From Sclerodactyla briareus (lineage: Eukaryota; Echinodermata; Holothuroidea; Dendrochirotida; Sclerodactylidae): a stretch of DNA of 64,000 nucleotides. The stretch covers positions 217,511-281,510 of the forward strand of contig JAODTK010005109.1 in NCBI GenBank assembly GCA_026419785.1, given 5' to 3'. A model generated the notes under the pieces. That model was not told the origin of the DNA, ran no database searches, and saw only the letters and a list, made by a program, of their open reading frames with translations. Shown here one piece after another: positions 12,160-63,300 of the stretch; position 1 is the stretch's first letter, and the number at the start of each line of letters is the position of its first letter. Position numbers and translations under genes: made by a program.

Positions 12160-12168
12160 CGATCGACC
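12160..12168 (+). repeat. Target-site duplication, left copy
   Basis: CGATCGACC immediately precedes the left terminal inverted repeat at 12169. The same nine bases follow the right terminal repeat at 12910-12918. Confidence 0.85.
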
Positions 12169-12909
12169 TAGTCTTGTGTTGAGACGTCGATATATCCCCT
12201 ATTATTCCGCGCCGTTTATCCGGCATTTACATTGTCTGTACTGTGCCACAATTGGCCTTCTGTATCAACGTACTTGGTTCAAATTATTGATATTTTTTTT
12301 GGAGAATTATTTTCAGCTGTTTAAAAATTGCCCAAACCTGCTAAATCGGTGGATCTCGATGGTGTCGCTTATTGTAACGAGATGTTATAGTCAACTCTAA
12401 CATTCATCCGAAAAAATCTAAATATTCAAGCAGGGGTTCTCTATCAGTTGTAGAGCTGAGACGTCGAATATCTTCCATTCCCGATTTTTCCTGCTAACCT
12501 TCTATCCGGCATTACATTTCTTACTGCACACCATTGGCCTTCTGTATCAACGTCTTGTTTCAAATTGTTAGAGAGTATTTTTCTTCAAGATATGATTTTC
12601 AGCCTGTTAAAATCGTCCAAACTGCTAACAAAACGTTGGATCCTCCACGTCGCTTAGTGTAACTCGCTGTTATTGTCTATCCATTCATCGAAAAAATCTA
12701 AATAATTCCAAGCAGGGTTTCTCTATCAGTGGTTGTGTTTGGCCGCTTTCCAATATTGGAAGCGAAATAACATTTGGGACAGATACTTTCAGTGATAGAC
12801 AGAGTAGACGGTTACAGAAATGGTGGTGCCTGCTAATTTAATGATGGCTGTGCGCGCGGATAAAAGCCAGCGGAAAATCAGAATATAACAACGTCTCAAC
12901 ACAAGACTA
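12169..12909. mobile_element. 741-bp MITE with tandem interior and 9-bp TSD
   Basis: The left end begins with TAGTCTTGTGTTGAGACGT at 12169-12187, and the right end carries its exact reverse complement at 12891-12909. The match continues inward to about 26 bp with two mismatches. Identical 9-bp direct repeats flank it exactly. The interior is two diverged tandem units of about 280 bp (12181-12455 and 12456-12740), followed by about 140 bp of unique sequence. No transposase is encoded; the 106-codon frame at 12080-12400 spans the element edge. A 9-bp duplication suggests a Mutator-like transposase, but the terminal sequence is not one I recognise, so the superfamily is open. Confidence 0.85.
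12181..12740 (+). repeat. Two tandem 280-bp units inside the MITE
   Basis: Unit one starts GAGACGTCGATATATC at 12181, and unit two starts GAGACGTCGAATATC near 12458. Shared landmarks are TATCCGGCATT-ACATT, ATTGGCCTTCTGTATCAACG, TTTCAAATT, GATTTTCAGC or ATTTTCAGC, CCAAACTGCTAA, GTCGCTTA, TTCATC-GAAAAAATCTAAAT, and GTTTCTCTATCAGT at each end. The start of unit two resembles the terminal repeat, as if the unit boundary were an internalised copy of the element end. Confidence 0.8.
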
Positions 12910-12918
12910 CGATCGACC
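12910..12918 (+). repeat. Target-site duplication, right copy
   Basis: CGATCGACC directly after the right terminal inverted repeat, identical to 12160-12168. Confidence 0.85.
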
Positions 12919-17094: not shown

Positions 17095-19597
17095 GCATCG
17101 AATTCACGCCCCTGTGGTCATCACGTCATTGAAAGCTGACTAAGGAAGGGGGACTTGTTTATTCATCATGTTGACACCATGTACAGTTCATGTCGAGTCA
17201 TAAATAAAATACAATACACCGCTAGATCGTATACCCCCCCCCCCCCCTCCCAACTGTCACGCCAGTTTTCGTTGTTCTCGTTGGCCCTAGCTCAGTTTTG
17301 GTATCTCGGTATACTTCTATTGCATTGGGTACTTGGAGCTTGTCGGTTGCATATTATAGTTTAGCATCAGAATTATGCACCCGTTTTGTTTACTTGCGTC
17401 ATTACATAGCACTATACCCTGCATGAGGCAATAGTTTCTCCGAAAGCAAGCCCTTCCCGATAAATCGAAAGTACCAGATTGCGTGTTATGTTTGGCCTAT
17501 GTACTGCATATGCAGTTACCCGTGACCGGTGTTAATTGAACCTTTGTACAAAGTGAAGATTTACTAGTAACGTCAACTTCATTGACCCCTGTTTTAAAGA
17601 TGTCGCTTGAAAAATACGGGGATTACAACTACTGACTAATGAGATATAATGAAATAAATAAATATGAATACTACGAAGGTAAGAGTTGCACAGTGAATTC
17701 AACTTGGGTAAAACGAAATCTCCAGTGAACCTATATGGCCAGTTAAACCTCACTTGGATTTTTGGTTTTTCCACTATTTCTTTCTCGTTTTTTCCACTTT
17801 CCCCTCCTTCATTTCCCGTTTTGAGCCTTCGATTTCCCGATTTTCCCTCTCGATCTTTTGTCGGAGGGGGGGGGGGGGGTTCCCCCTGCCCCACCACTGG
17901 CTTGGACACTGCTGAAAATAGAGCCTACTACAAATAGATCACAGGCAAATATGTATGCAATTGACTCTAGAAAGCCCCATGTGTGTCGCTCTATCGGCGC
18001 GAAACTATTATATGAGTTGCGTTAATAATTGACGTACTTTATGATAGCAAGTGATGGCGCCATGTGCCCTAAAAATTGATGCACTCATGCCTTCAAAGGT
18101 CAATGGTCATTTAACAGATTCGCTCTAAACTTGCGCAGGTGAAAGAGGACATATCAAAACCCCCACACCTCAAATTGAAAATCTGGAATGTTGCCTCGTT
18201 GAAATATTTCAATTTGCTTTTGGGAAATTCGATGAATCACGGGGGAAGTGATGCGAAGACCGCCCATGGACCCTGCATATTTAAAGTACAACTGCAGGAT
18301 AATAAAGATGTAACATATTAGCTGGAGAGAAAGCAATTAGAAATATTGATGCATTCATCCAAACCGAAGTTTCATTCGGACTTTCGCTACGGAGAGTTTA
18401 CAGCCCTTTGAAGTTTCTGCATGTGTATTGCACAAGACCGAAAAAAACATCCATCACCAATGATTCATACTTGCACAACCCTGCCAAAAAAGCTTGTTTT
18501 CTATTGTAATGAAAATTCACACATTCTTTCAAATTCGGAAAAACATTTAGTCTATGGGAGAGGAGTTATTGTTGGAGTGGGTTGGTAGGTGTTGATGGTT
18601 ACTTTGGTGAGAGAAAAACAGCAAAACTTCCGCTTATTGTTGACTTACTAAAAAATTAAACAATCAAATTACTGAACTATCTTCCCGGATTGTCCAAGTG
18701 TGATATCATGCGTTATTGCGGAATCTGATAATGGACCAAACTTGAAGCCCAAACTCCACATAGGAACATCGTATCAAAATGGGGTTTAGACCTATACAGT
18801 TTTCCATTCTCCACCTCTGTTGTATCCAAGCCTGCAGCTGTCCCATAATAATGCTGCACTTTTTTCGCTATGGTAACGACAGAAGAACGAAGAGAGATAT
18901 TCACTTAAAATGAATGAGATTAAGCAGCTCTAACTCGTCACACCTCTGACTTGAGATCAGAAGATCCGGTCACTTGCCATTTAATGTTTTGAAAAAGGTC
19001 TGTCTACCTCTCTACTTATTGACCTTTGCACCACGGTAGAAATGTCAAAGGTAAAATTTTCCAAAAAAGTGCCAGCATTTTAAGAGGAAATTGGACGTGA
19101 AAATTACTATCCACCAAACTTTGATATCTGATGAGCACTAATGAGTTTGTGATTCGAACCAATCCCAGCACTTTGTCACCTCCCACATCTCGAGTTGAAC
19201 GGAACATATTAGTTTGTTCGTCTATGCGAGATACATCTGGTAACCTCAGTTGACCTCTGTGGATAAGATTTTAGGATAAGATGGAATAGTATATAGGAGG
19301 TGGAATTATAGTGAATTACCTGAATTAATCCGGAAAAGGCAAGAATCACTACGCAGTGATGTGTTCTTGGTATCAATGGGCTCCTTCGTGTTCCCCACGC
19401 AATGTCACAAACAATGTTGCCAAGCTGATTGTACCTTATCAGTACAATCGAAATCTGTCTGAAATTTTGTTCTTAGTTTCGGCTGTCAATCTGATAAATA
19501 GGAAGTACCAAAGTCCAGTCATATTCACACGACCATTGCCCTTTAAATAATAACAGAAAATACCACATCATAATTTTACCCTTGTTAAAGCTTCTCG
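17095..19597. other. No gene; G and C tracts
   Basis: A C run lies at about 17233-17247, and a G run at about 17866-17878 next to CCCCCTGCCCCACCACTGGC, the mark of the G-tract repeats seen elsewhere. The rest is AT-rich with no domain. Frames near 17532-17909 are proline and lysine low complexity created by the tract. Confidence 0.45.
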
Positions 19598-19617
19598 TGT
19601 ATAATAACTCCATACAG

Positions 19618-19750
19618 CCCATGAACCCGAAGGTCCACGAGACCGAAGGTTCGTGAGACCGAAAATGGAAAAGGGTCCACGGGACCGAAGGTTCGATAGA
19701 CCGAAATTGGAAAAGAGTCCACGAGAGACCGAAGGTTCCCGAAACCGAAT
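19618..19750 (+). repeat. Left GACCGAAGGT tandem array
   Basis: About three imperfect units of roughly 45 to 60 bp, each built from GTCCACGAGACCGAAGGTTCG and AGACCGAAA-TGGAAAAG. Units vary in length by small gaps. Confidence 0.75.
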
Positions 19751-20425
19751 ATAAAAGAAAATACTTAGGACCGAGCGTTGTTTTATGAATGAAATTCAAT
19801 AGCGGAGACCAATTAATGAGGAAATATCGTCTCGCAATACCCGGCGATAATGGTCGGTGCCGCTTGCCTTTCGAAGTTCAAACTTACACTCGAGAGCAGC
19901 ATATATAATTGGGGTAATTGATTGGATTCCAGTACATAAAAATCTAATTACACTTACAAACGAAAATGTAACTCAGCCTACCCACTTGTCATTAAAGCAA
20001 CTTCAAACAAAATCGAACACGCTGTTGTTGAAAATAGATCTAAGCCCTAGTATACACTACACTCATGATTAATACTGAAAACAGTAGGACTCCTATACAC
20101 ACTACGGGTAAACCACCACGTGCCCAATTAGTGGGAGACCAATAGAACCACGCGGTTATACTAATCGCGTTCACAAGAAAGCTTCACTAAGTACACACAT
20201 TCGCAGACACACAGAAGCATGCGTGACTACATACATAGATTACCTCGAGAGATGAAAAATACGTGTAAAATTAATCATCCATGATTCTGGCAGGTGAAAC
20301 GACAGTGAAGTTTTTTTTTTTTTTCTAGTGGACGTCGCTCCGTGTTTTGGAATTTCGATTGAGTGGTTATTCTCTCTGGTCAGTTATCATGTTCGTAACT
20401 GCCCGAGGAATCGTACAGGTGTAGG

Positions 20426-20530
20426 CAGTGGCGGCGGAACCGGGGGGGCTTGGGGGGGGGGCTCAGCCCCCCCCCTTGAAAAAAATGAGGGGGCAAACGC
20501 TTGTTTAGCCCCCCCAATATTCCAACATTC
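20426..20530 (+). repeat. G-tract repeat, CAGTGGCGG type
   Basis: Begins CAGTGGCGGCGGAACC, then a G7-CTT-G10 block, CTCAGCCCCCCCCCTTGA and AGCCCCCCCAATATTCC. G and C tracts can pair into a hairpin. The CAG-starting head resembles hAT termini, but no partner end is seen. Confidence 0.6.
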
Positions 20531-21654
20531 AATGTATGTATCTAATTGCTATCGCCTGATTGTTTAAATTAATATTCAAAATTTCTAGGAATACTCCGTG
20601 AATCGTGACAATCAATCATATTAAGCACTCTGGAGGCTATATATAGCATATGAGTCATCTTCCAGTTGCATCTTTGCGGTTTCGTAATGGCCGTACTGTG
20701 ATACTCGTGAGCAGAAGCCTGTACTGCGCGTCGCATCGGTTTGACATATTCACTGTTTTCTGCATTCCTCACCCAATGCACCAGCACTGTACAGCCTATG
20801 TACACACTATATAGGCTAATTGCCACATTATGTACCATAGCCCGTTGGTAATCTTGCTCCAGGCGACCCATCAAATCAAATCAATCGAGGTTGCGATGCT
20901 GTCGGGACGTAGAGCCTATTACTTTACTACAAAATATGACCTAAGTCAGATGGCCATTAAAATGAATTTAACAATTGTACGCTTCGGTGTATATATAGGC
21001 TACGCATTATAAACACTAGTGGTGCAGTACTATTTCCTTGTATTTATTTCGCTGGTATTATGCCTTGTCACGTGATTAACGAAGGCTGAAACTATTTCGA
21101 ATTAATTCGAGACAAAAACATGTTCTACTCAGCATGTGCTTCATGCTTCATTCTTCAGATGACTTAAGAATATGTAAAAATTGAGTAACTATTATGAAAA
21201 GTATCCATTTTGAAAAATGGTATGTAGTTGATGTACGTGAATTTGGTAGGCTATATTTCAGCAAAAGAGCATACCAAATTTCAAGAATAAAAATTTCGGT
21301 GGGATCACCCTCACCCACGACAGTGTAAGGATTACTTTGGTCGGTCAATCTTCAAATTTTGCAATTTCAAATGTGTTGTTTAACATAGCTTAAATATATA
21401 CACATTGGCATAGCTATACATTCACGGAAACGACTGCGCATCTCGACCTGTCAACACGTACCATACTTAGAAAGGGTGTTTCAAATGTAAAAGACTGGAT
21501 CAAATGAATTTCTTGTACGGAGTGACATTTTATTCAACTTGTATTAAAACTTATATTCAAATTGCATTTTTTCTCTGATTTGTTCTTGATATTCATGCAA
21601 TTTCACACATGAGACCTGTAGTTTATGCCTAGATATTTGTACACAGGCCACTCG

Positions 21655-21890
21655 GCAAATGCCGTTTCCGGCCATCTAGAGGCCTGGAAACTCCAAAACT
21701 TTCTTGTACGCTTCGCGCCAACCAATGGTGGCGCTACGCTTAGATAAGTACATCCACTTCGCCCCCCAATACAAAATACATTCCGCCGCGCCTGGGTGTA
21801 GGCGTGGCGTTGACGTAAAGCTCAAAGCAACAGGGAAAACCGGTTGCCCGTGTGCATGCGGGGCGGTCATATCATTAATGGGGGGCGTGC
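21655..21890 (-). repeat. R2 fragment, reversed
   Basis: Read on the minus strand it contains TATCTAAGCGTAGCGCCACC, GGTTGGCGCGAAGCGTAC and CCTCTAGATGGCCGGAAACG. These are the R2 landmarks TCTAAGCGGAGCGCCACC, GGCGCGTAGCGT and CCCTAGATTGCAGGAAACG. Only the first quarter of R2 is present. Confidence 0.65.
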
Positions 21891-22189
21891 AAACCTAATC
21901 TGTAGGTTTAAGGGAGATTCATGACTGGAATTATCCCTAAATGATCCTCCACCTAAACTTTCTGAACCCCAGATGGTCGCCCTCCTTCAGGTAGATCATA
22001 TATCCCATCTCCACAACGAGCACCAGTGCATGCATTTGTATGAGCTACAAAATCAATCATACTGTTGCATGGTTACATGGTCAGATGGTCACCGTAAGTA
22101 GCCTTACCGCCATTCTAAGAGTTAATTAACTGGAGCGTATCAGAACGGCGGAATGATACAACTATAACGGGAAGTTATCACTTTCGCTC

Positions 22190-22375
22190 TCGCGGACCTT
22201 CGGTCTCGCGACTCTTTATACGAATTTCGGTCTCGTTGAACTCAGCCTTACATTTTCGGTATCGCGGACTCTTTCTCACTTTGATCTCGCGGACCCTTTC
22301 TCACTTTCGGTCTTCGGTCTTGTGGGCCGTCGTCTCGTGGGCCGCGGTCTCGTGGACCTTCGTCTCGTGGGGCTG
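22190..22375 (-). repeat. Right GACCGAAGGT tandem array, inverted
   Basis: Repeated TCGCGGACCTTCGGTCTC, CTCGCGGACCCTTTCTCAC, and TCGTGGGCCG phrases, the reverse complement of the left array at 19618-19750. More units than on the left, and more diverged. Confidence 0.75.
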
Positions 22376-22489
22376 CCCCGAACGGGTGGGTATTATCATG
22401 TGCTTGCACTAATATTTTATCAATCGTATGCAGTATTCACTTGCTAGGCAGCGCGTAACTGAAGATGCTGTATTCATACTTGTTCATTG

Positions 22490-24448
22490 TATGACAATTG
22501 CCCATATGTCCCGATATTGGACGACCCTATTTCCCCTGTGGAGGTGGAAAATGCAATAAAGACATTGAAGACTGATACAAGTGGTGGACCCTCCTGGAGT
22601 TCCCCCGGGTATTCTGAAATGGTTGCCGATTCAGTGGGTCTTGTCGTTTACGATCTTGTTTAATATTGTCTTTACGACCCATCAAATGCCAGGGACTTGG
22701 GCTTTTCCTCGGCTTATTGTCATGTTCAAAAAAGGGGAGAGAGGGTTTGTGGTAATTACCAGGGAATAAGTATTATGGATAGTGTAGCAAAACTTTATGA
22801 TACCATCTTATACTTTGGCGTTTGGAGCATTGGTTTAACTAAAGAACAAGCAGGGGGGTCAGCGTGGGCGAGGGTGTGTAGAGCAAATTCTTATTATGCG
22901 TTTGCTTTTGATTTTGCAAAGTGTAAACGGAAGAAGTTATATGTTACGTTTATTGATGTTTCCAAAGCATACGACAAGAGTGCCCCACGTAATGGGTTGA
23001 TAACCGTTTTTATAACAGTTATTGGGTTGCGGTGCCGGTATGTTAGTCGCTATTGCGGCGTGTTATTCCGATACGCGTTTTATTTTGGGTACTGCCCTGA
23101 TTTGTGCGTGTATTGGTCTACGTCAATGTAGTCCTACGAGCTGCTTCTTATTCACCTTCATGTGAACCAAATTGAAGGATCGGTGTGGATTAGATGGGAA
23201 TTTAGAGTGGCTACACTCGCTGCTCTTAATGATGATACTGTTTTGTTGGCAATTAGTCGGGATAAATGTGTTGAAAAATTTAGTATTTTGATGGATTATT
23301 GTGAGCGTTCGGGGATGGTTGCTAATCGATCAAAAACTGAATTCATGGTCATAAATGGGACAGAATTGGATAAACAGTCTTTTATTGTGGGTGGGTAAGA
23401 AATTAAGAAGTGTGATTCGTATGTTTATCTGGGTGCTGCCTCCACTCAGGATGGCAAGGTGATAGTTCAATTCAAAAGCACTGTAAAGATAAACAATGCC
23501 ATGCTTGGAAGTTTGGGGCTTTTGTTGAGAAAAATGTTGACTTTCCTATTTGGGCTAAACGTAAAATTTTCGAATCCGCGTTCCTGCCAGCTTTGCTGTA
23601 TATAGTTGTGAGTCTGGCTGTGCAGTGAATGTGGGAGTTTAGAAAGCACGTATGATGCCTGTAAAAGTAATGTTGGGTGTTCGGAAGTCAACCCTAACTT
23701 GATTTGTTTTGGTCAGAAGGCAAGGTTCCCCCGTCTTTCATTTAGGGTTCAAACTGCTCAGTAGAGACAATAACTAGTTATTGTCTCCGAGAATATGCTG
23801 GTTGACGATCCCTTTTGGCTTGTGTGGAAGTTATGTGACCACAACGAAGGTATAAGTTTTACCGTCAGTCCATGAATCGTTAGTGTAATCCTAGCGAAGA
23901 AATCAGACCATGTTTATGAGGAAGAATGGGTCGAAAATTGTCCCTATAGAGAATGTATTAACCCATACTGACAGTACATCGTATTTATACCGACCCCACG
24001 TTTGAGGTACCTGATCATGAGAGGGTGCATTTTACACGGATTAGAACGTCATCTCACAGTTTATTATTGAAATGGGAAGGTGGTCTAGAATCGCCAGGGA
24101 AGACCGTTTGTGCAGGTGCGGCCCTGTGGTGCAAACAGAAGCACGTGTCTTACTTGATTGCCCGTTAACAATTTTTTTGCGGGAGGAAAATGCCGAGTTG
24201 TCCTTCGTCGGTTTAGAAAAATGATTTAATTCGGAAATTACAAACATGATAAGTTATTAAAGTAAGTGTAATAGGGTATTTCAGTCGTGAGACCTTACAG
24301 AGTATCCTTTCTTTTTTCTTGTGTGTTGTATTTTTGTATTCCATTGATTATTTGCACTCTGTACTGTTGTATTTCCACATTTGTATTATTTAGTGTCATC
24401 GTTGCCCGATTTCTGTGATATGCGTGACGAGTTGGTACAGTGAATAAT
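22490..24448 (+). mobile_element. LINE relic with reverse transcriptase, 5'-truncated
   Basis: In shifting plus-strand frames this reads as a non-LTR retrotransposon: ILDDPISPVEVENAIKTLKT (about 22516-22575), MPGTWAFPRLIVMFKKGER (22685-22745), NYQGISIMDSVAKLYDTIL (about 22755-22810), KEQAGG, KKLYVTFIDVSKAYDK (about 22933-22980, the first catalytic box), then NDDTVLLA (about 23228-23252) where a Y/F-ADD catalytic box is expected, GMVANRSKTEFMVIN (23313-23357), and YLGAAS (about 23427). The C-terminal part has LCRCG at 24108-24122 followed by DCPLT, a decayed Cys-rich motif. At least four frameshifts and several stops show it is dead. Clade is uncertain. The order of boxes and the 3' tail at 24449 make a LINE secure. 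Confidence 0.88.
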
Positions 24449-24537
24449 ATCTATCATCTATCTATCTATCTACTATCTATCTATCTACTATCTATCTATC
24501 TATCTATCTACTATCTATCTATCTACTATCTATCTAT
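24449..24537 (+). repeat. (TATC)n microsatellite, likely LINE 3' tail
   Basis: About 89 bp of CTAT/TATC repeats with regular slips (CTACTATC). It directly follows the LINE relic. Some LINEs end in short tandem tails in place of poly(A), so this is probably the element terminus. Confidence 0.85.
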
Positions 24538-25754
24538 GATAGTACACATAGCTATAGCCTTCATCGTGCAGACCCAGTCGTGGTCTACATGCATGCCTCG
24601 TTGATAAATACATGTTATTGTATGTTATTTCTTCTCATCCAATTTTGTCTTGAAACATCCGGGATCAATAGTTGCGAAACTTGCAAGAATGCTAGTGGGA
24701 TATATCCGTTTTAATATTGGCAACCAGTCTAACATAAACAATGAACTAGTGACTGTTTCCGGATTAGCTTTTTTCTAAGGCTTCATGGAGTAAAGGGTTT
24801 GAAATTAAAATAGCGCTAGATCATTACCGTATATCTGCTATTAACCTTGTTGAATGAAAGGGCTGCGGAATTGCCGGGGAAGGAGACGAGGTGGGGTAAG
24901 GGAGAACGTACACCCTTCTCTTCGATAGGGGCCATTCTCCCACTCCGCCGATGAGGAAAGCGTCAGGAAATGTGGGCAGGAAAACGTCGAATTAAAGATT
25001 TTGTTTGTTGATTGTACTCGTGGGTTTCGCCGTTGATTTAGAAACTACCCGACTGCACAGAACAACAATAGAGGGGCAATAAGACTGCCGGTCTGGTGGG
25101 TAGGATGCGATATTGACTATATGAGGATTGCAATTCCGCGTGAGGGCAAGGGATGCGGTTTTACTGAAACACAGAGACATGCAACATGAGAGCTAGTACA
25201 GTTTACAGTGTCTTTAAAATCGCCCTACTACGCGTAGTACACCCTCTAGTTTGATTTATGTACATATCAGGGGTGTAACCCTCAGCACAATCGATGTCGA
25301 GGTTATTCCCATGGATCTGTATAGGTGCAGTAGTTGTAGCTATACACGTTCGATATCACATAAACATAAATGGTTGCTGGTTGCAATATGAGTTCATCGA
25401 GTCTTGAACAAGACTATTTACGTATCACAGTCTGAATCTGTGCGGCACTGAACAGACATAGGGCCTCTATGGTCAAATAGCAGTGACGTAAATATATGTT
25501 CAACGAGTAGTCGGTCCATTGATCCCCCTGTAGTCTGGGAGGTAATAAATGCAGTAGCTATTCTTCTTTTAAATCGAGAGGTATAGTACAGCGTAAATGA
25601 GGATAAATAGAGAAAACAAAAAGTCAGTCTCTGAGCTACACCGATCAATTGCCAAACGCCAGGCAACCCTTCCTACACTGTGTCGTTTTTGCTAGAGCTT
25701 CGCACTTGAGTGCACTTCACATACACGCAGGTACACACACACACGTGCACACAG
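24538..25754. other. No gene seen
   Basis: Unassigned. Frames at 24992-25180 and 25418-25666 on the minus strand show no domain. A short CA-rich run precedes 25755. Confidence 0.45.
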
Positions 25755-25830
25755 CAGTGGTGGCGCCAGGATTTCCCCGACGGGGGGTCCGATTTCCCCG
25801 ACGGGGGTTTCAGGTTCCCCGACGAGCCTT
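25755..25830 (+). repeat. G-tract repeat with three TTCCCCGACGGGG units
   Basis: Starts CAGTGGTGGCGCCAGGATT, followed by three close copies of TTCCCCGACGGGGG. The palindromic unit can fold. A similar CCCCGACGAG and CCCGACAGGGGAGC region is at 28395-28450. Confidence 0.55.
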
Positions 25831-25984
25831 ACCCTACCCCTATGTCAAGCTCATTTTTTTATATTTTCCTTTTTTGAATACTTTTTCCCAACTTTTTAAA
25901 TTTTTTTGTATGCTGTATGAAGATATGAGGTGGTCATGCATGAACTCGGTCGAGAATACTTGAGCATATTCACAGCAAATTGAG

Positions 25985-26045
25985 CAGGGACGTAGCTAGG
26001 GTCATAATGATTGGAGAGGGGGGGGGGTGAAGAAGTGAAAAATTC
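25985..26045 (+). repeat. hAT-like end with G tract
   Basis: CAGGGACGTAGCTAGGGTC followed by a G10 run. A near-exact inverted counterpart, GACCCTAGCCACGTCCCTG, lies at 30190-30208. The 8 bases outside the two ends (AAATTGAG and CACGCACA) differ, so they may be ends of different copies. Confidence 0.5.
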
Positions 26046-26574
26046 CAACTGTCATATATTTCATTTTTTTTCCCAACTCACCCTACCCCCCTATACCGAA
26101 GGAGCATTTTTTTTGCGGTCGTTCCCTTTTTTTGTCCTCTGGGGGGCTCCCGGCCATTTTTATTTTAAAGGGTTTTGTCCAACTTTTGGTGAAAATGTAT
26201 CAATCGGACCGAGAGTTCACAGATATAGAGTTCAGTGAAGTGAGTAAGTTGAGGCCAATCTCATCTGAGAACTGTTTTCGGGGAATTGACTGTGGACTCC
26301 ACCTAATGCACTGGAGATGGGACTCGACTCCAACTCGAGTAAGATACACAAGTGACGCAACGCATATAACTGTAGGCCTACTCTCTATAGATACCATTGT
26401 ATTTATAGTGGCAATTCAGACTGGCCTTAGTGGCACTCTCGGTATTTGGAAGTTGGAAGGGTAGTGGACGGCTGGTTGCCACAAGCTCCGACTGACAACC
26501 GACTGACAGCATGCGATGTTTAATTACAATCAGTGCCCCGGTACGAACATCACAATTTTGAGCGGGAATGCGAA

Positions 26575-26815
26575 GTTTGATAATGGCCTGGGGGAATGGG
26601 TCTAAGGGGAGGGGGGTCCCCCTCCCCTCTGGAAGATTTTTGCATTTCCCGTGACCGTAGATGCAATTTGGTCCAATACAGCACTCCAAAAAGCTCACTT
26701 CATTCCAGAAAAATTTTGGCGAGGGAGGACCGCCGAGGCCTCCCCCCCCCCCCCCCCCCCCCCCCTCCTCCCACTCTAGAGATTTTTGCATTTCAGTTGC
26801 CTTAGATCATTTGGA
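26575..26815 (+). repeat. Two tandem units with G and C tracts
   Basis: TGGAAGATTTTTGCATTTCC at about 26630 and CTAGAGATTTTTGCATTTC at about 26776 begin two units of about 145 bp, each preceded by a G- or C-rich block. The C run at 26744-26765 is about 22 bases. Frames over it are glycine or proline runs and are not genes. Confidence 0.6.
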
Positions 26816-27274
26816 TGCATTATGACACTCCTACACATTCACAGGGGAGAACATCGCTTCCAGAAATAATTGTGCAGTCTCACGTCCTTAGATGCGACTT
26901 GCCTACTCAGGGATCTTGGGTGTGATTTTTTCTGGCAAATTGTACTGAGCTCCACGACCAGTAAGTAGCCTCTTCTTTTGGTGTGGGTGTAATTCTCACC
27001 TGACAGCGGAGACCGCCAACATAGAGCATACGGGGACCATTCCAATTTAGAAGGGCGAACAAATTTGGGCCCGACTTTTTGGATGTGGGCCAAACCGGAA
27101 GTATAGTAACCGCTCCCCCGTGCGCCCCCTTTTTTTTCGCGTTTTTTTTCAAGTGGCATTCTATCATCAATTTTGGCCAGTCCGAATGAGTCACCAGTTG
27201 CGTCTCCATACTTTTTATAATAATACTGGGGGGCACAGGGAGTAGAGAACCTTTCTCATAGTAGGACCAATAAT

Positions 27275-27440
27275 ACTCTCTAAGCGTAGCGCCACTATTT
27301 GGTTTGGCGCGGAGCGCCCAGAGATTTTGGTTGCGCAAGCCCCCCATGATGCCGGAATGAACTCTCCCAGGCTTTTTGTGCTGCCAAACTTATTCACTTT
27401 GTGATCAAAATTTTTGTAATCGATGGGCAATTGGAACATT
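27275..27440 (+). repeat. R2-like fragment
   Basis: Contains CTCTAAGCGTAGCGCCACTA and TTTGGCGCGGAGCGCCCAGA, the R2 head motif. The GGCGCGGAGCGCC piece is a near-perfect palindrome. The rest does not align to R2. Confidence 0.5.
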
Positions 27441-28079
27441 TTTGTCAACCTATCGTCTATCTCTGCCCCTACTTAACTTAATTTTCAACAGTTCCTGATC
27501 CTACTAATTTAACAGTGCAGCACTCGAAGCGCGCAATTTTTTTTTTTTTTTTGTTGGGGTGGGGGTCCCCCCGGCACATCTGGAGAAACAGGATCCTCGT
27601 ATTTCCCGCCATTCAGCTGACTATCCATGAACGCAATATTTTATATTTCAGTCCCATGCAGATTTACAAAATTGCGCTAGCCTAATGTAAAATAACGCTT
27701 GTGGGTCAATTTCGCAGATTTTTAAAAGCTTTTTTTTTTTTTTCCGTATTGGTTGTTGGCGAATCTAATCCCTACCCAAATCTCTAATCGTGACTAGACA
27801 CAATTGATTGTCATAACACTACCGACGCCACTCACGGCGGTCCGTTGTAAATATGCGTTTAATTGAAGGAAAAAGTAATTTAATGCGGCGCGAAGCGCGC
27901 AAAATTTTTGAACATTATCTGGGTATTGATAAAAAAAAAAATACAATTCTATTTGTTTGTAATTGTATTTCACTGTTTGGTACATGAATACGACATATTC
28001 CTTTTGGTCGAGTCGGAAAATTTACAAAAATTGATTGGCCTCGTCGTAAAATATACAATCGGACGATCTGTCAGAAATT

Positions 28080-28460
28080 TCCCCCCCTGGATATTCGAAA
28101 ATTCCATGCAAGGTCGCGTCTGAACCATTTTTTGGGGGTGAGACCCCCCCACCCCCCCCCACACACACCCACCCGGCTCGCTGACGTTTCCTGACTATAG
28201 GCGCGCGAAGCGCTCCGAAAATTTTGGACTGAATAATGGAATTTTCGTTATAAAGAAAGTTAAAAATCCTTATCACTACTTGGTTCGGGGGGCAATAGGC
28301 CCTCCTCGGGGTGTGTAAAAATGTTACACAAAACAGACCCACAATCAACAACACCAACAAAACAACCGCGTACCCGGGTACCCACTCGGGCTCCCGACGA
28401 GATTGACAGAGTCCCCGATGGGGAGGGGAAGGCCTTCCCGACAGGGGAGCATGGCAATCT
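28080..28460. repeat. G/C-tract repeat cluster
   Basis: Includes GGTGAGACCCCCCCACCCC, GCGCGCGAAGCGCTCCGAAA, then from 28285 GGGGGGCAATAGGCCCTCC and CCCCGATGGGGAGGGGAAGG. These are fragments of the G-tract families jammed together. The open frames here are shadows of the tracts. Confidence 0.5.
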
Positions 28461-29228
28461 TGTGACCAGTCTTAATTTTATGAAAGGTAGCTTAGTGATA
28501 AATTCCCACGGAGAGCAAAGATTTTCACAAACTAAGACAAATTATTTTTATTTTTGTGAATTTTTGTCAATTTGGCATCAAGAAGGTAATTTTTTGGCAA
28601 ATAATTTTTTGCTCCCCGCAAGGCTCTGGCCCCTGTATTGAAATCCATAATCAGTTGAAATGGTAGTTTTGGCAAATTAAAGTCATATGTTTTTATATTC
28701 AAGACTTCAATTGAAGACAAGGTTAATTTCCCCTCGGGGAATTCCAACTTGGCGTACCCACAACTCTAAACCAAGAAAAGAGTCTAATATGTATAATCGG
28801 GGGTATGTTTGGGCTTTTTTTTTTCGGCTCCGCGTCAGCGTTGTTAGCAACTTGGGCTGGTCTGCATGTACAGAAGAACGCGTAGTTTGGAAATTTCAGT
28901 TTAACGCTGTAAACTCCTCCAAATCACTATTGGCACTTTACAATCACAATGAAGGCCAGTTAGGAAATATACACATGAGCAACCACTGGGGCACCAATAG
29001 GGACAACACTCTTAAACCGAATCGGTCTCTCTGGCCTCAAGTACCAAAAAATGGTCTTCATCCAGTTTTAGGAAGCTACCCAGATTGAAAAGAACTATCA
29101 GTCTCACCACTTTCCGAATCAAGGTTCCAAATGGAGTTTTATACACTTAGGGGGATAATTAGCCTCCGTCGTTACTGATTTTTCTCCCTCCCTTGTACCT
29201 AAGCTATCAACGCCTGGTTTTCACAGGT

Positions 29229-29968
29229 GTTTTTTTTTTTTTTCAAGAACTGCGCGCGCTACTCGGAATGGCTCTCCCGGCCATGACGTTTATATCTTGG
29301 TTGGGACAGTAGATTATACGAGGCTGACTAAATGTGCCCAAAATTTTTGCTGAGATCTGATTTTTTCAGATGTGCCGGAAACCATTGCGCCGCATCCCCG
29401 CGCAATTGTTTGTAACACATCTGGCCAAAAATGGCTGAAGTCGAGGAAGCGATAGGACGAGGTCCGACAAAATGTCAAATTATCCATGTTCGATACCCAT
29501 GTTTTACAGCTTGGTACATGCAGCCTAAAACGCCGGGTAGTTAATTTCAGCCATCTGGGCGGGCTTGTACAACCAAACATTTTTTTTTTTCAGAGAACTG
29601 CGCGCGCGCTACTCGGAATGGCTCTCCTCCCGCGGCCATGGGACGTTTTATAATCTTGGTGGGACAGTAGAAGCTAATAGTTTTTTTTTTTTTTGGAAAC
29701 AAACCCCTCCATGTCCAACATTTTCGCTGAAAATCCGATTTTTTTGTTTCAGATGTGCCGGGAAAACAAATTTTGCGCGCGTCTCCGCAGGCAATTTTTA
29801 ACATTCTGGCCAAAAGCTGAGTCGAGGAAGCGATAGGACCGAAGGCCGCCAAATGTCCCAATTCGCCATGTTCGTAACCCATGTTTAAAGCTTGGTACAT
29901 GCAGCCTCCAACGGCGCCCGTGTAAGTTAATTTCCACAGCCGTCTGGGCGGCTTGTACATCCCAAACC
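29229..29968 (+). repeat. Two tandem units of about 350-390 bp
   Basis: Unit one (29229-29578) and unit two (29579-29968) share a poly(T) run, then AACTGCGCGCGCTACTCGG, AATGGCTCTCC, CATG-GACGTTTATA, GGTGGGACAGTAGA, TTTCAGATGTGCCGG, CAATTTTTAACA-TCTGGCC, GTCGAGGAAGCGATAGGA, CCATGTTCG-TACCCATGTTT, AGCTTGGTACATGCAGCCT, GTTAATTTC and TCTGGGCGG-CTTGTAC. Unit two has an extra poly(T) insert near 29680-29695. No protein domain is seen; the 152-codon minus frame (29547-30005) lies within the repeat. Confidence 0.85.
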
Positions 29969-30149
29969 TTTTCCCTTGTAACCACTCGCGCCAGCCTATG
30001 ATCACGTGTGCGCTTTGATATTATTTATCAACATTCACCCACCCCCCTTTCAAATGTCTGCGCCCCTCCCGGATGCTCCTTAGTTTCAGTGTGATTTTTT
30101 GTTTTCTAGTTGGACTTTCGTAGATTTTACCCTACCAAATTAAACTTTA

Positions 30150-30208
30150 AATTTAACCTTACCCCCCCCCCCCCCTCCCCCCATCGTCAGACCCTAGCCA
30201 CGTCCCTG
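30150..30208 (-). repeat. hAT-like end with G tract, reversed
   Basis: On the minus strand it begins CAGGGACGTGGCTAGGGTC and runs into CTGACGATGGGGGGAGG and a long G run. It is the inverted partner in sequence of the end at 25985. Confidence 0.5.
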
Positions 30209-30846
30209 CACGCACATACACACACACATCATGACACATATAGATTTCTCAACTTCACAGACAGGAATCGAAAAATCGTTTCCACTGCAGTCCTATATCG
30301 ACCAGTGGTACGCGTCACAATACATATATTCAATCAATTAGTATCGACGTACAGCGAGAATAATTTGTAGTGACGTCATGTGAACGCCTAGTCCCTTATT
30401 CGCCGGGTGTTGTGGAGACGTTTTTTATATGCCTCTTCAATTCCCTAAACAGAAAAAAGAAATTCTTGCGCTAACAAAGTTATTAATGTAAGTTTCTAAG
30501 CTTTTAACTTTCATCTCTGACTGAATGTAATTTCCTTTCAAGCCATTTCTATAGGCGAAAATATAGAAATAACACAAATGTTCTGATAATAAGTATCAGG
30601 CAATTATGTAGAACGAACCGGACAACCTGGAGGACGACATCTAAAATAGAAACCCACAGGATGGCGACTAAACCTCCTATAGCTGTAAGAATTGCGGGGT
30701 ACTTTCAAAGAACGATTATTACACCAGGCTACATTGAACACACTTGAGATTTGATTAGACCGTTACTAAAACGCGATGGAAGTACCAAAAATATACGCCC
30801 CATGACCATCTACGAATCTAAAACCTAAAAATGATACATCATTAAA

Positions 30847-31143
30847 ATGAAGCCACTGCGTAACGTGATGAATATGACACTAACGAGGATTTCTTTTTAT
30901 TCGAAAGGAATATGTACAGCAATCTGTATCGTGTGCTATGTTTTCATACCGTGTATACACGAACTGAGGAAGGACGGATTGCTACCATTCATATACCAGT
31001 ACGTTGTCACACCATGTGCTACGTGCCCTGATTCACACGGTGCATATCATATGCTCATATTGGTCATACACCCGCCAGGTATCAAAAAATTTACCCCCAC
31101 CGTATGCAGATGTGTAACACAGGGCGACAGGTTCAACAGTTAG
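30847..31143 (+). CDS. Possible type II membrane protein fragment (GT31-like?)
   Basis: A 98-codon frame starting with ATG in an A-rich context. Residues about 22-40 form a hydrophobic segment (ICTAICIVCYVFI) after a short basic head, as in Golgi type II enzymes. Further on, CATCPDSHGAYHMLILVIH (about 58-76) followed by PPGIKKF recalls the cysteine plus LLILVxSxPG strand at the start of beta-1,3-galactosyltransferase (GT31) domains. The expected next box, IRxTWG, is not seen. The frame stops at TAG inside the head of a G-tract repeat (AGTGGCGTACCCACGAGG at 31141), so an insertion may have cut the gene. The family link is an inference from a short stretch, and chance is possible. Confidence 0.25.
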   Translation: MKPLRNVMNMTLTRISFYSKGICTAICIVCYVFIPCIHELRKDGLLPFIYQYVVTPCATCPDSHGAYHMLILVIHPPGIKKFTPTVCRCVTQGDRFNS

Positions 31144-31175
31144 TGGCGTACCCACGAGGGGGGGGGGGGGTGTCA
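31141..31175 (+). repeat. G-tract repeat head
   Basis: AGTGGCGTACCCACGAGG followed by a G12 run. Same head class as AGTGGCGTACCCCCGGGG (reversed) near 63585-63608. Confidence 0.55.
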
Positions 31176-32999
31176 GAAGAACCTCCCCATTACCCAAGTG
31201 ACTAATAAAATTTTTTCAACCCCAAGACTAATTTTTCACTAGTGTTTCGTTGTTCGCATTTCCATTTTCCTCACCCACTTAAACCTTAAAGTAAATGGCC
31301 AGATATGGTAACTTGTCCTATAGCCTATCTGCTGAATTGGTTTATGTATATCCACCACGCTCTTTTTTTTCAGCCCCTTTCCAGATGTGGTCAGTGTATG
31401 TTTGTTTCCCTATAAACGCCTTTTCCTTTTCGAACGGTTGGCCATGGGCACGACGCCACTGGGCAGGCTACGCGGTTCGATACCTCACGAGCATTGGATC
31501 TTTTCAATTACTATGGAACCCTGTGTGTTAGTGCTACGATATACGATACGCAATCGACCAGTTGACGTTAGGAAGACAATCACTGATACTTTTATTATCA
31601 AACTCTTGGCAACAAATTTTAAACATTCCGACATATTTAGCATCTTTTCTGTATAATGTTTAAAACTCAAATACAGTACAAACCTATCATGATTTGTCAT
31701 CGTGTTGAACATTGACCAGCTATTCAGTGAGTTTCCGTGACGAAATAGTGTTTAGTTTTTCTGAAACACAATTTATCATGGAGTGGAAATTATACTCAAA
31801 AGACCTGATCATGTTTAAAATGACTGAAACTTGTGGTATTTCTATCTTATACATTATGACAGTTGAGCTTCCAGACCGAATTGACAGTCTATTACGAGTG
31901 TAACGTTAAGCACAATTAGCTATTGCCAAATTTGCCATGTGACATTACAGGGGAAAGCAACAGGTTCCCTTCATAACACGGAGTCATTAGTTGATGAAAA
32001 AATGCACTTTCGAAAATCTCATACAAAACAAACTTGGATGAAATCCGAACGAGAACCTACAAATTCGTTCACGAAATTTTAGAGAATAATCTCTTCATTT
32101 CGAAAAAAAAAAACCTTTCCAGACGTAAAACTGCAGCAGTGCTCTGTGTGGGTTATGGGCAGGCCTTTACATTCAGGCATTGTCCCTCCGTGATGTATAG
32201 ATTCCTGGACTTTCCCCCAGAGTTTACATCTGAAAATATCTCAACAAGCTGACAGTGGCAAACATGCTAGAACATCCAAAATTTGGGGATGGGTCCGTGT
32301 GGGGTTTTTATATGTCCTCTTTTTTTACCCGTCTAGTTTAATGCAAAAATAGTTGACATAACCATGGCCTTCAACACTAGGTTGTGTTATTGTACTTTAC
32401 GTAATCGAGCAATCAATTGATTAATCAATCGATCCCAGCCTTGGGGTCAACTGGACCGTTCTCTTTTTCCGAAAAACTCTAAATGAAAAGCTGCGGAACA
32501 GACTCGGCAACTGAAAAACATTATCGGCAAGCCATTTGACAAACTGAGAATGTTCACTGGTTGATTTAAACACGATTACGCGGACTTACTTTACCGAGCA
32601 TGAAACTGAATGAATCGAAATGAAACGTGTGTGACGTGCACTCTGAGAGATCAAGGTCAAGGGCCCGCGCGCGCCCGTACAGAAGGTCGAGCGAGGTTGG
32701 GCATGTTGTTACTATCCCGTATCTCTCTGTTTATCACACCGATATATCCGAAACTCGGGAAACTCCAAATGGATTCAGTAACTGAAAAAGCTTCGGCAAA
32801 GGAAGGAAGGGCATTCTTGGCGACAGTTTATTCGATAACCAATCACGAGCTTATCAATAAGTCGAAACGATAATCATCGCACTTGTGAAATGATTGAATG
32901 ATCACTCTACAGCACGAGTACGTTATAAGCCTGCTAGTGGTTACAGTTTAATGAGATGATAATGATATTGTGTCAAAGGTCAATTGGCAGTGCTACGGG
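31176..32999. other. No gene seen
   Basis: AT-rich, unassigned. A palindrome-rich spot, CAATCAATTGATTAATCAATC, sits near 32409-32429. Frames at 31295-31656 and 32610-32873 have no domain. Confidence 0.4.
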
Positions 33000-33070
33000 A
33001 GGGAGGGGGGGGGGGGGGGGCGTGGAGCCACCCCATGAAAGTCCGTCCCCCCGGCGCCCCCACTGAGAAA
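33000..33070 (+). repeat. G-tract element
   Basis: G20-rich run at about 33000-33020, then GTCCGTCCCCCCGGCGCCCC. A C-rich return arm could pair with the G run. Confidence 0.55.
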
Positions 33071-48795: not shown

Positions 48796-48895
48796 AGTTT
48801 TTTTTAATAGGTACATACACATACAATAGCGCGGAGCCTACAAATTTTGTGGGTGTTTTCACGAATTTGTGTTCAACGGTTGAATACATGCAGGG

Positions 48896-48944
48896 GGGTG
48901 TTGTGGGGGGGGGGGGTGGGGGGGGGGGGGGGGGGGGGGGGGGG
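48896..48944 (+). repeat. Longest G run in the window
   Basis: A G-only run of about 12 bases, one T, and then about 27 to 30 G with one early interruption. It could form G-quadruplexes. Length in the genome may differ, because such runs are hard to sequence. Confidence 0.85.
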
Positions 48945-55599: not shown

Positions 55600-56400
55600 C
55601 GAAAAACCATTGTCATGTTCACAGTTACAAGATTACAATAGGGATAATCTAGTACTCATTATGGGGAACTCAAGTATTAACTTCCTCCATCCAGTCCATT
55701 GAGTCCTTGGAGGCATATCAAAATTTCGACCTGATCGGACAGGCACTTCTGGCCTCATCATGTTCACAAGATGTCAGACTTTGATCGCTCTTGACCTCAG
55801 ATGACCAAAATCCACCCCAAAAATTTCAAAACCAAAAAACCCCAAAGTTTTTTTTATCCCCGAACGGGACCCCCGTTCCATAAAAAAAAAAAAGGTCCCT
55901 GCATGTACTCCCATAATAAAGCGCATACCAGATATCAACCTGATTGGACCAGACATTCCTAGGACTTTGGCCTCTCTTGACCTCAGATGACCTTTGACTT
56001 AACCTCCAAACAATAGGATCAGTACTGATTCATGGGAACCCATACCAAGCATGCAGCTTTATCCATGCAGGTGGGTCGAGTTATCGTAACTTAACGAGCT
56101 AAAATTAGCCAAATTATCACTTTTTCACAATTTTTCATTCCCCCCCCCCCCTCCAAACTGACTCGGTCTACACGAAAAACGATACGGTTCCTGTACTTCC
56201 ATAAGGAAGCTGCAACATCGCGAATTTCAAACTGATCGGACGAGGCATTCCGGACTTATTGTGTCAACAAGATTTTCAGACTTTGACCTCTGGTGACCTC
56301 AGATGACCTCTGACCTGACCCCAAAACAATAGGGATCATTATGGGAGACCCATATACCAAGATTGAGCTTCATCCATCATGTCATGACTGCATAGATCCT
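55600..56400 (+). repeat. R1 copy, right end degraded
   Basis: Contains two to three R1 blocks: AATAGGG-TCAT, CATTATGGGGAAC, ATACCAAG, TTGACCTCAGATGACC, TTCCCCC-CCAAACTGAC, AACCATACGGTTCCTG, and ends CATGACTGCATAGATCC at 56384-56400, the start of the R1 terminal repeat without its hairpin. A C10 run lies at 56142-56151. Confidence 0.75.
56284..56316 (-). promoter_or_regulatory. Cluster of four AGGTCA half-sites
   Basis: Plus strand reads TGACCT, four bases, TGACCT, four bases, TGACCT, one base, TGACCT. On the minus strand this is AGGTCA in a DR1 followed by two DR4 spacings. DR1 and DR4 are nuclear-receptor geometries (RXR or HNF4-type, and thyroid or LXR-type). It is part of the R1 consensus, so it may be coincidental to the repeat. 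No evidence of function in the sequence. Confidence 0.35.
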
Positions 56401-56790
56401 AAAATTCCGTGAATAATTGCATCCCGCTTAGTTAATGTGCACGAGGTCAACTATTAGTTCACAGCTGTTCACTTTCGATTTTCACTTATAAACTTTCAGT
56501 TCCGTAAATGATCAGACGGGCCTATATGCCATTTTGAACAGTACAGTAAATTCAAATGATGAAAGCCGGGGACAGTGTATTTGAGCAATGTAGGCAGACT
56601 TTAGTGAGTAATCAGCTTCATATTAAACCAAAGAGTAATTTGTCAGTTTAGCTTGAAGCAGCTCGAATCACGACTAGAAAGTCCCATCTTGCTAGGATGT
56701 GGTTACTGTTTGAGAATTCTAAACTTTTCTGAATACTAGTTTTTGATTCCTTGACGAAGTCAGAGGAAATCTATGCAGTCATGAAAGGGT

Positions 56791-56845
56791 GTATAGTATG
56801 TATGATGTATGTATGTATGTATGTAATGTATGTATGTATGTTATG

Positions 56846-56876
<31 letters not shown>

Positions 56877-56892
56877 TGTATGTATGTATGTG
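56791..56892 (+). repeat. (TATG)n microsatellite inside left TIR
   Basis: About 100 bp of GTAT with slips. The right inverted repeat has a CA run of about 25 bp at the matching place (57712-57735), so the microsatellite expanded on one side. Confidence 0.85.
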
Positions 56893-56949
56893 ACGCTGGC
56901 TTGTGAACACGATAACTCGACCCCACCTGTTTACAAGGTTTTCATTCTT

Positions 56950-57600
56950 TGACCTCTGGTGACCTCAGATGACCTCTGACCTGACCCCAAAACAATAGGG
57001 TTCATGTACTCATCATGGGGAACACACATACCAAGTATGAGCTTCATCCGTCCAGGGGTCCGAGTTAATCGTGTTTACAAGCCAAATTACCCAAAATATC
57101 GACTTTTCACAAATTTTTTATTTTTGACCAAAATTCACCCCCAACCTACACCAAAAACAATAGGGTTCATGTACTCATCATGGGGAACACACATACCAAG
57201 TATGAGCCGGACCTACTCTGACCTGATCAAGTTATCGTGTTTACAAGGTTTTCAGACTTTGACCTCTGGTGACCTCAGACGTTCTCTGACCTGACCCCAA
57301 AACAATAGGGTTCATGTACTCATCATGGGGAACACACATACCAAGTATGATCTCCATCTCCAGGCGGGTCGCCGTTACCGTGTTTTACAATCCAAAATTG
57401 GCCAATATCGACTTTTCAAATTTTCAATTTTTGATCAAAATCCCCCCAACCTTATACCAAAACCAATAGGGTTTCCTGTGCTCCCCATAAGAAGCTGCAC
57501 ACCAAATTTCACCTGATCAGACCAACCATTCTGGACTTATCGTGTTTACAAGGTTTTCAGACTTTGACCTCTGGTGACCTACAATGACCTCTTCTGACCT
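56950..57600 (-). promoter_or_regulatory. Three AGGTCA half-site clusters
   Basis: At 56950-56982 four TGACCT with spacers 4, 4 and 1. At 57260-57292 three remain (the third is lost to a substitution block). At 57565-57600 four with spacers 4, 4 and 4. Spacing is more constant than the surrounding sequence, but all derive from the same repeat block. Confidence 0.35.
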
Positions 57601-57774
57601 GATCCCGAAACAATTGGGTTCATGTACTCATCATGGGGAACACACATACCAAGTATGAGCCGGACCTACTCTGACCTGATCAAGTTATCGTGTTTACAAG
57701 CTGGGCGTCACAAATACACACACACACACACACACGACGTGACTGCATAGATTCCTCTGACTTCGTCAAGGAAT

Positions 57775-61681: not shown

Positions 61682-63300
61682 GTTACTCTATAGAGCCCAC
61701 CCGGATCCTCTACTTCTCTGCGCATAAACTGAACAATATCCGAGACTTTTCCTGATGTGTTATCTCAGTTTACCTCGGGTGACCTTCGAGCTGACCTAGC
61801 TAAAACTACTCTACTCCACATGACATGAATACCGGTATTCGTCCAACGAAAAGATGTAGAGGGAATAGTCACCCCTAAATCTTATTCTTCAATTGTAATT
61901 TCCCCGTGCTCGGATTGGATTGCTTGCTCACATAATCACATTGATCTGTTGATTTAATGATTCACCTATTTGAAGTTAGCACCACGTTTGCAGCTACTCC
62001 ATTTTGAACGTTTTTTTATCAAATATATTTTATACTTGATCTAGTTAGAAATGATGAAAGGACCATGAGAGTAGGAAAAACAATGGTGTTAGGTCCAGAT
62101 CGTTTGCCCCCCCTTCTCTCTCCTCCCCACCCATCACCCCGTTAGCCAACGGTCTCATACTGAAAGATACTCTGGGAACCTGGATGCAACTGCCTGTAGA
62201 TTTTTTTATAGAAGCAAGAATTGCCATCGACCTGTAATAGGCAACATTACACATCGCAAACATAACCCACCCCTGGCCACCCTTCCCACTATTTGGGTCC
62301 GTATTTAGCTGTGCACTACCGATGATTAGCCGTAATTTGGAATATCTGTGGATCGTATTTCTTACTTGGACATTGCAAAATTGACGTGACACAAGCTCAG
62401 TCGAAAAATTTGCTAAAGTCCGATATCGGAAATTTCAACTGAATTTCGCGTTAGAGGCTCTTAACTTACTTCCTATACTATAGATTACACACCATCTGAC
62501 TATACTGCATATGACCGCCACGCCAATACGTTCATTTAATTACACGATGAAGGGTAGAGTTCTGTCGAATAGTTGCGTAGTCATACAATTTCTCCTTCCC
62601 TAACAAACGGCAACCCCCCCCCCCCCACCAACCCCCCCACCCCCCACATGTCGATGTATTTTACAGTTAGCTATAAAGGGAAGTTTTTATAATTTGAAAA
62701 TCATGGAGAACTATCAACTTCTTTACTTGAAATTTTCAATACTGCAGGTTTCAAGGACACGGTATGAAGGCGTTACCAGACTTGATGAATGAAGTCGATT
62801 CGCCCGTTGAAGGAAAATACATACATATACCCCACCAGAATCAACAAACCGCCCGTGGCCAATATGTGTGTTACCCTAACACGACCAACCGTGAAAAATC
62901 TGCCTCGATACTAACGATGCCCTGATAATTGACTTTGGCAGACGTGAGTGCGCAATGCACTCACTCCCTTTACCTGTGAACTACATAATTGCCGTGTACC
63001 GTATATCCTCGGTGCGTGGTAATTTGGCATTACGTGGGCAGGTTCGGTGCTATATAATACAACAATGGGTATTCTATATACTTGTTCTGTGCTTCGATCC
63101 GGTCAATAAGAGTACGTTATGATTGTCGAATCATGCATGTGGGTTGTGCATTGACGGAATTTAGAAAGAGTACACCTTCCCTATTCATGCTATGCGGCTG
63201 CAGTAAAACGCCTACTGCAATATCAGCTAGGGCCTGGAATGCCGTAGGAACGTTGGCATTATCCGGCCACCCCGCCTTACAAACGTCATACAATAATATA
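61682..63300. other. No gene seen
   Basis: Unassigned. C tracts at 62613-62643. The 115-codon minus frame (62045-62392) spans a C-rich patch near 62107-62130 and has no domain. Confidence 0.4.

What the first reader, a model, noticed from the sequence alone, without database searches (positions are those of the whole stretch)
12169..12909. Complete small transposon with exact 9-bp target duplication and a tandem interior
The sequence shows a 26-bp terminal inverted repeat (19 bases exact at the outside: TAGTCTTGTGTTGAGACGT), identical CGATCGACC on both sides, and two tandem 280-bp units inside. The start of the second unit resembles the element end. A 9-bp duplication points to a Mutator-like integrase, but the terminal bases are not ones I recognise, so this may be a new MITE family. 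The intact duplication suggests it is one of the younger insertions in the window.
Basis: partly seen in the sequence, partly recalled or inferred. Interest (0 to 1): 0.72.

Follow-up and report, generated by a model that had tools for sequence, protein, structure and literature searches.

The report
MITE copy with duplicated left half
This is a real small transposon copy that inserted with a 9-base target duplication; it belongs to a numerous family of transposase-less hairpin elements in the same eukaryotic genome and is unusual mainly in carrying its left half twice.

Summary
Window 12169-12909 is a 741-bp element with 19 exact (25 of 27) terminal inverted bases, CGATCGACC on both sides, and two direct units 77% alike. 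It belongs to a large family in the same 319-Mb eukaryotic genome: 48 match rows for the element, 160 copies of its end at up to 3 mismatches, 0 for the reversed control. The usual member is about 445 bp, has one unit, and its consensus folds as a long hairpin (113 arm pairs). In 42 copies with both ends, only 9-bp flanks match above background (66% identity, 26% shuffled; 8 of 42 exact), so 9 bp is a family property. The window copy is the only one of 78 matching stretches with the left 270 bp repeated inside one element; the two units look like close kin, so probably an old internal duplication. Long TIRs and 9-bp TSDs suggest a non-autonomous Mutator-like element, but no MULE domain was detected in the genome and no autonomous relative was found; the superfamily is inferred. 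An ordinary MITE family with one odd copy.

The parts
12160..12168 (.). left target site duplication CGATCGACC
   Evidence: Read directly; 9 bp is the family's duplication length
12169..12195 (+). left terminal inverted repeat, outer 27 nt (19 exact)
   Evidence: end pattern found 160 times in the genome at up to 3 mismatches
12169..12451 (+). unit 1: consensus positions 1-272 (left arm plus middle)
   Evidence: 82.7% to the 445-bp consensus
12452..12458 (+). junction between the two units; a short TAG is shared by the interior (consensus ~274) and the element terminus
   Evidence: read by eye in the alignment; the microhomology is inference
12459..12909 (+). unit 2 plus right arm: consensus positions 14-445
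   Evidence: 83.7% to consensus
12883..12909 (-). right terminal inverted repeat, outer 27 nt
12910..12918 (.). right target site duplication CGATCGACC

Best explanation
The 741-bp sequence is a non-autonomous (MITE / foldback-like) cut-and-paste DNA transposon copy. A transposase supplied in trans recognised the ends (TAGTCTTGTGTTRAGACGTYGATATAT), cut the element out and inserted it with a 9-bp staggered target cut; gap filling made the CGATCGACC duplication. The ordinary family member is about 445 bp, mostly two ~120-140-bp imperfect inverted arms. In the lineage of the window copy the left ~273 bp was duplicated in tandem, probably by template switching or slippage during repair, joined where the interior and the element terminus share TAG(T); the second unit's own outer end has since decayed. 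The dimer more likely than not arose before its last insertion, because the units are far more diverged than the outer ends and target duplication. Shown: ends, 9-bp duplications in the family, family size. Fairly supported: unit kinship. Inferred: transposase type (Mutator-like), the duplication mechanism, and the order of events.
For: Ends and TSD. 48 match rows in the genome, 35 of which run from query 285-391 to 685-741, that is one unit plus right arm. 160 ends, control 0. 9-bp flanks 66% identical against 26% shuffled, other lengths from 4 to 13 at 22-32% (42 copies). Consensus of 445 bp from 25 copies. Hairpin: -211 kcal/mol against -104 +/- 6 for 100 dinucleotide shuffles (RNA parameters), 113 arm pairs. 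Units U1 and U2 sister in a 41-row tree, support 95/78, in 92% of 200 bootstrap trees; 9 shared derived bases against 1.9 expected, rank 2 of 1127 pairs. Literature: 8-11-bp TSDs and long TIRs for MULEs, 9 bp for Rehavkus and some other groups (passages of PMC6446971); 9-bp TSDs and MITE forms in Tm1 (passages of PMC3169594).
Against: No MULE domain (PF10551) match in the genome (4 candidates scored, intron-blind search; the control rang in 3 of 14 named genomes). No Pfam match in the 10 ORFs tried behind two unpaired family ends. The U1-U2 support is under the 95/80 mark and the bootstrap had not settled. U2 shares almost as much with L077 (8 derived bases against 1.5 expected, rank 4). U1 is more diverged than U2 (47 against 30 differences of 252; 45 against 41 of 260 in another alignment). 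The outer blocks of the element are not clearly better conserved than the rest (0.90 at both ends, mean 0.875), so selection on the ends is not visible. In 19 of 42 copies the flanks match in fewer than 7 of 9 bases.
Confidence: 0.8

Rival explanations
1. Nested insertion: a second family member jumped into the first at consensus ~273, and homologous recombination between the two right halves then removed the rest, leaving left half + whole element inside the first one's target duplication. (Contests only the duplication part of the best explanation.)
For: Unit 2 seems to begin at the element terminus (TAG at the junction, read by eye); unit divergence (25%) lies within that of two ordinary copies (mean 20%, 5-95% range 13-28%). 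U2 shares nearly as many derived bases with L077 as with U1.
Against: The two units share 9 derived bases against 1.9 expected, rank 2 of 1127 pairs, and group together at 95/78.
Confidence: 0.2
2. The tandem duplication happened in place, after insertion at this site. (Contests only the order of events.)
For: No second dimer among 78 stretches with a family match, some of them partial.
Against: Units differ at 25% of sites, while the 9-bp duplication is exact and the outer 27 nt differ from the consensus at only 1 (left) and 2 (right) sites, where about 4 to 5 each would be expected at 16-17% divergence (read). A rough argument on few bases: 8 of 42 copies have exact duplications anyway.
Confidence: 0.25
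3. The family is moved by a Merlin-type (IS1016/IS1595) transposase rather than a Mutator type.
For: Merlin also makes 8-9-bp duplications (recalled); one PF12762 match with a stop inside exists in the genome at C2120:481981-482274.
Against: In the 4.3 kb around that match the consensus finds only a 12-bp chance match (E 0.23) and the end pattern only one site with 6 of 19 mismatches; the one listed family end on that contig is about 157 kb away (capped list). Merlin ends usually start with GG (recalled).
Confidence: 0.08

Closest known systems
Mutator-like elements (MULEs), invertebrate clades such as Phantom and Rehavkus
   Same: 9-bp target duplication; long, imperfect terminal inverted repeats; forms that share only the ends (passages of PMC6446971)
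   Different: No transposase with these ends found; no PF10551 match in the genome; terminal bases TAG...CTA not compared with any repeat library (none available here)
Tm1 Mutator/Foldback family of root-knot nematodes (PMC3169594, passages seen)
   Same: 9-bp TSDs, MITE-like members, composite inverted repeats
   Different: Tm1 arms consist largely of 13-15-bp tandem repeats with other terminal motifs, and Tm1 has a Phantom-type transposase member
Tetris of Drosophila virilis (PMC4079207, passages seen)
   Same: Non-autonomous foldback-like element, 8-10-bp TSDs, tandemly repeated internal units, suggested by its authors to be Mutator
   Different: Tetris repeats (~220 bp) lie in its terminal inverted repeats and seed satellites; here 1 of 78 matching stretches repeats the left half inside one element, once

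Membership tests
MITE (non-autonomous DNA transposon) | terminal inverted repeats bounded by target site duplications | tested here: met
MITE (non-autonomous DNA transposon) | short, multi-copy, no coding capacity | tested here: met
   445-bp consensus, many copies; no ORF of 150 aa or more in the element; one 112-aa stop-to-stop stretch overlaps it and its flank
MITE (non-autonomous DNA transposon) | empty site reading through the target once | not tested
   no flank search was run; it needs a paralogous or population empty site
Mutator superfamily | 8-11-bp (mostly 9) target duplication | tested here: met
   of lengths 4-13 only 9 is above background
Mutator superfamily | long terminal inverted repeats | tested here: met
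   113 pairs between the arms of the consensus, 62-104 in the 25 copies
Mutator superfamily | MULE (DDE) transposase in an autonomous relative with the same ends | tested here: not met
   PF10551: 0 matches, six-frame without regard to introns; no Pfam match in 10 ORFs behind two unpaired ends. A missed or extinct partner is not excluded
Merlin superfamily | IS1595-type transposase next to these ends | tested here: not met
   one match with a stop inside, no convincing family end within the 4.3 kb around it
hAT / P superfamilies | 8-bp (P: 7-8-bp) target duplication (recalled) | tested here: not met
   7- and 8-bp flanks 28% and 32% identical against 25-26% shuffled; 9-bp flanks 66%

The most novel reading that the evidence does not exclude
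The family is moved by a transposase that standard profiles do not recognise, in a genome without a detected MULE domain, and its members show steps from hairpin MITE to satellite: one-unit elements, a left-half dimer (window), and kilobase stretches with tandem interiors between the same ends (L060, L066). The window copy would then be an early step of satellite birth inside a mobile element. Against a direct series: those kilobase interiors show no match to the 445-bp consensus beyond the ends.
Probability: 0.1. Interest if true: 0.5.

Novelty: new member of a known kind. Interest (0 to 1): 0.25.

Why it matters
It shows that reading a single copy can find true transposon borders and target duplications, and it gives a set of non-autonomous elements with the same ends but different interiors. 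If the dimer proves mobile, it would document how tandem repeats start inside a MITE. Otherwise it is a routine repeat annotation for this genome.

Tried and rejected
Autonomous partner: PF10551 in the whole genome, none; PF12762, one match with a stop inside and no convincing family end near it. Behind two unpaired ends with unique interiors (L067+L087, L073+L088) three weak right-end candidates (4-6 of 19 mismatches) had, by eye, flanks matching in at most 4 of 9 bases, and 10 ORFs gave no Pfam match (3 of 3 from the first, 7 of 12 from the second, of at least 100 aa). Facing pairs of ends 2-10 kb apart: none seen by eye in the roughly 100 places listed of 160. hAT and P-type: rejected by the duplication length. 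Window genes: 10 of the 41 stop-to-stop frames of 110 aa or more gave no Pfam match; no tRNA and no Rfam match at gathering score. The 24-base end pattern has no exact match in viral or prokaryote contigs. A text search for the first 12 bases listed one paper, by its title unrelated. A text search for five terms on internally duplicated Mutator MITEs listed none; a looser one on tandem dimers listed 18 papers, of which only Tetris was opened. Dimer junction in the genome: asked 31 times, never answered. PF00872: asked once, not answered. Joined-flank empty site: not asked.

Full report
WHAT IS THERE. The element at 12169-12909 is as described: 19 exact terminal inverted bases (25 of 27), CGATCGACC on both sides, and two direct units 77% alike. 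Of 93 exact inverted pairs of 12 bp or more (60-4000 bp apart) in the window, no other carries a flanking duplication over 3 bp, and 20 Markov shuffles reached at most 4 bp.

FAMILY. The window lies in a 319-Mb eukaryotic assembly of unnamed species. A search with the 741 bp gave 48 match rows, several from the same copy (a lower bound: 40 of 178 candidates scored); 35 of the 48 run from query 285-391 to 685-741, i.e. one unit plus the right arm. I fetched 38 stretches. From 25 of them a 445-bp consensus was made; 13 were left out (decayed, doubtful or not then placed ends, the tandem locus L021, and L045 with an insert). The 25 are 80.6-93.5% identical to it. The end pattern occurs 160 times in the genome at up to 3 mismatches, 0 for the reversed pattern; about 100 places were listed. 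The consensus folds as one long hairpin with RNA parameters, -211 kcal/mol against -104 +/- 6 in 100 shuffles, with 113 pairs between the arms; the 25 copies keep 62-104 such pairs. Of 20 further ends read 0.9 kb inward, some share only 38-139 bp with the consensus (L067, L072, L073, L076, L078) and then run into other sequence. L061 holds a 366-bp element that shares only its ends and has flanks matching in 8 of 9 bases.

TARGET DUPLICATION. 55 stretches were examined (the window copy and 54 fetched ones; L047, L048, L049, L058 and the later fetches were not given). 42 had both ends; 12 had decayed ends and 1 was partial. Among the 42, flanks of length 9 are 66% identical (26% shuffled), while lengths 4-8 and 10-13 give 22-32%. 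8 of 42 are exact (window included), 17 of 42 match in 8 or more, 23 of 42 in 7 or more. 19 of 42 do not reach 7, including L016 and L050 whose outer 16 bases are unchanged at both ends. So 9 bp is the family's duplication length, though many single copies no longer show it or never had it.

THE TANDEM INTERIOR. Unit 1 corresponds to consensus 1-272, unit 2 with the right arm to 14-445. Of 81 stretches given, 78 match the consensus, some only in part; only the window copy repeats the left 270 bp within one element. L021 holds two near-full copies 1.08 kb apart in a local duplication, and L060 and L066 repeat ~100-bp ends at 1.7-2.1 kb. Each unit is 16-17% from the consensus and they differ at 25% of 260 sites; ordinary copies differ by 20% on average, 5-95% range 13-28%. 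The units still look like close kin: sister at 95/78 in a tree of 41 rows (bootstrap not settled), 9 shared derived bases against 1.9 expected, rank 2 of 1127 pairs. U2 shares nearly as much with L077 (8 against 1.5, rank 4), so the case is fair, not firm. It favours an old duplication within one lineage over a chance nested pair. Because ends and target duplication are nearly unchanged while the units have diverged, I infer that the duplication came before the last jump; this rests on few bases. The genome search for a second copy of the junction did not complete.

MECHANISM AND CLASS. A 9-bp duplication with long imperfect inverted repeats and variable interiors is the pattern of non-autonomous Mutator-like elements (MULE TSD 8-11 bp, passages of PMC6446971; Tm1 mostly 9 bp with MITE members, passages of PMC3169594; Tetris 8-10 bp with internal tandem repeats, passages of PMC4079207). 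Against it, no MULE domain was detected in the genome (six frames, intron-blind), and no carrier of a transposase with these ends was found. The partner may be extinct, split by introns beyond detection, or of an unrecognised type. So: it works like a Mutator-type MITE; membership is not proven.

AGE. 'Young' is weak: exact duplications occur in 8 of 42 copies, and the body of this copy is among the more diverged ones.

VERDICT. A confirmed, ordinary MITE insertion with one unusual internal duplication. Whether the family has a name in Repbase or Dfam could not be checked here.

Noticed in passing
L060:1958-7108 (G000:C911): About 5.1 kb bounded by ~100-bp family ends, with an interior of about 2.2 tandem units of ~2.23 kb (82% alike); longest open stretch 139 aa; by eye no clear 9-bp duplication at the flanks.
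   Followed up: partly
L066:3389-9240 (G000:C2944): Family left ends at 3389 and 5465, each with ~600-bp tandem repeats behind it, and one right end at 9240; a ~2.08-kb higher-order repeat includes the left end. L064 shares the 600-bp array.
   Followed up: partly
L045, L082, L050, L074: Copies with inserts in the middle; those in L045 and L082 start at consensus 274-276, close to the window's unit junction. The L045 insert reads by eye like the tail of a non-LTR retrotransposon protein (not tested).
   Followed up: partly
L021 (G000:C3091:62500-66000): A direct duplication (about 1.2 kb aligned at 94%, period 1.1 kb) that carries a family copy in each unit, plus a fragment of a third.
   Followed up: partly
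L084, L085, L086: A subfamily with ends continuing GATACTT and a partly different interior.
   Followed up: no
window 56746-57774: 23-bp exact inverted repeat about 1 kb apart, with two more inverted pairs nearby (56382-56784, 56073-56923), without flanking duplication.
   Followed up: no
window 17233-33018, 48893-48944, 62611-62647: Several long C or G runs; similar runs stand in other stretches of this genome such as L009 and L050.
   Followed up: no
G000:C2120:481981-482274: A single Merlin-type (PF12762) transposase match in the genome, with a stop inside.
   Followed up: partly
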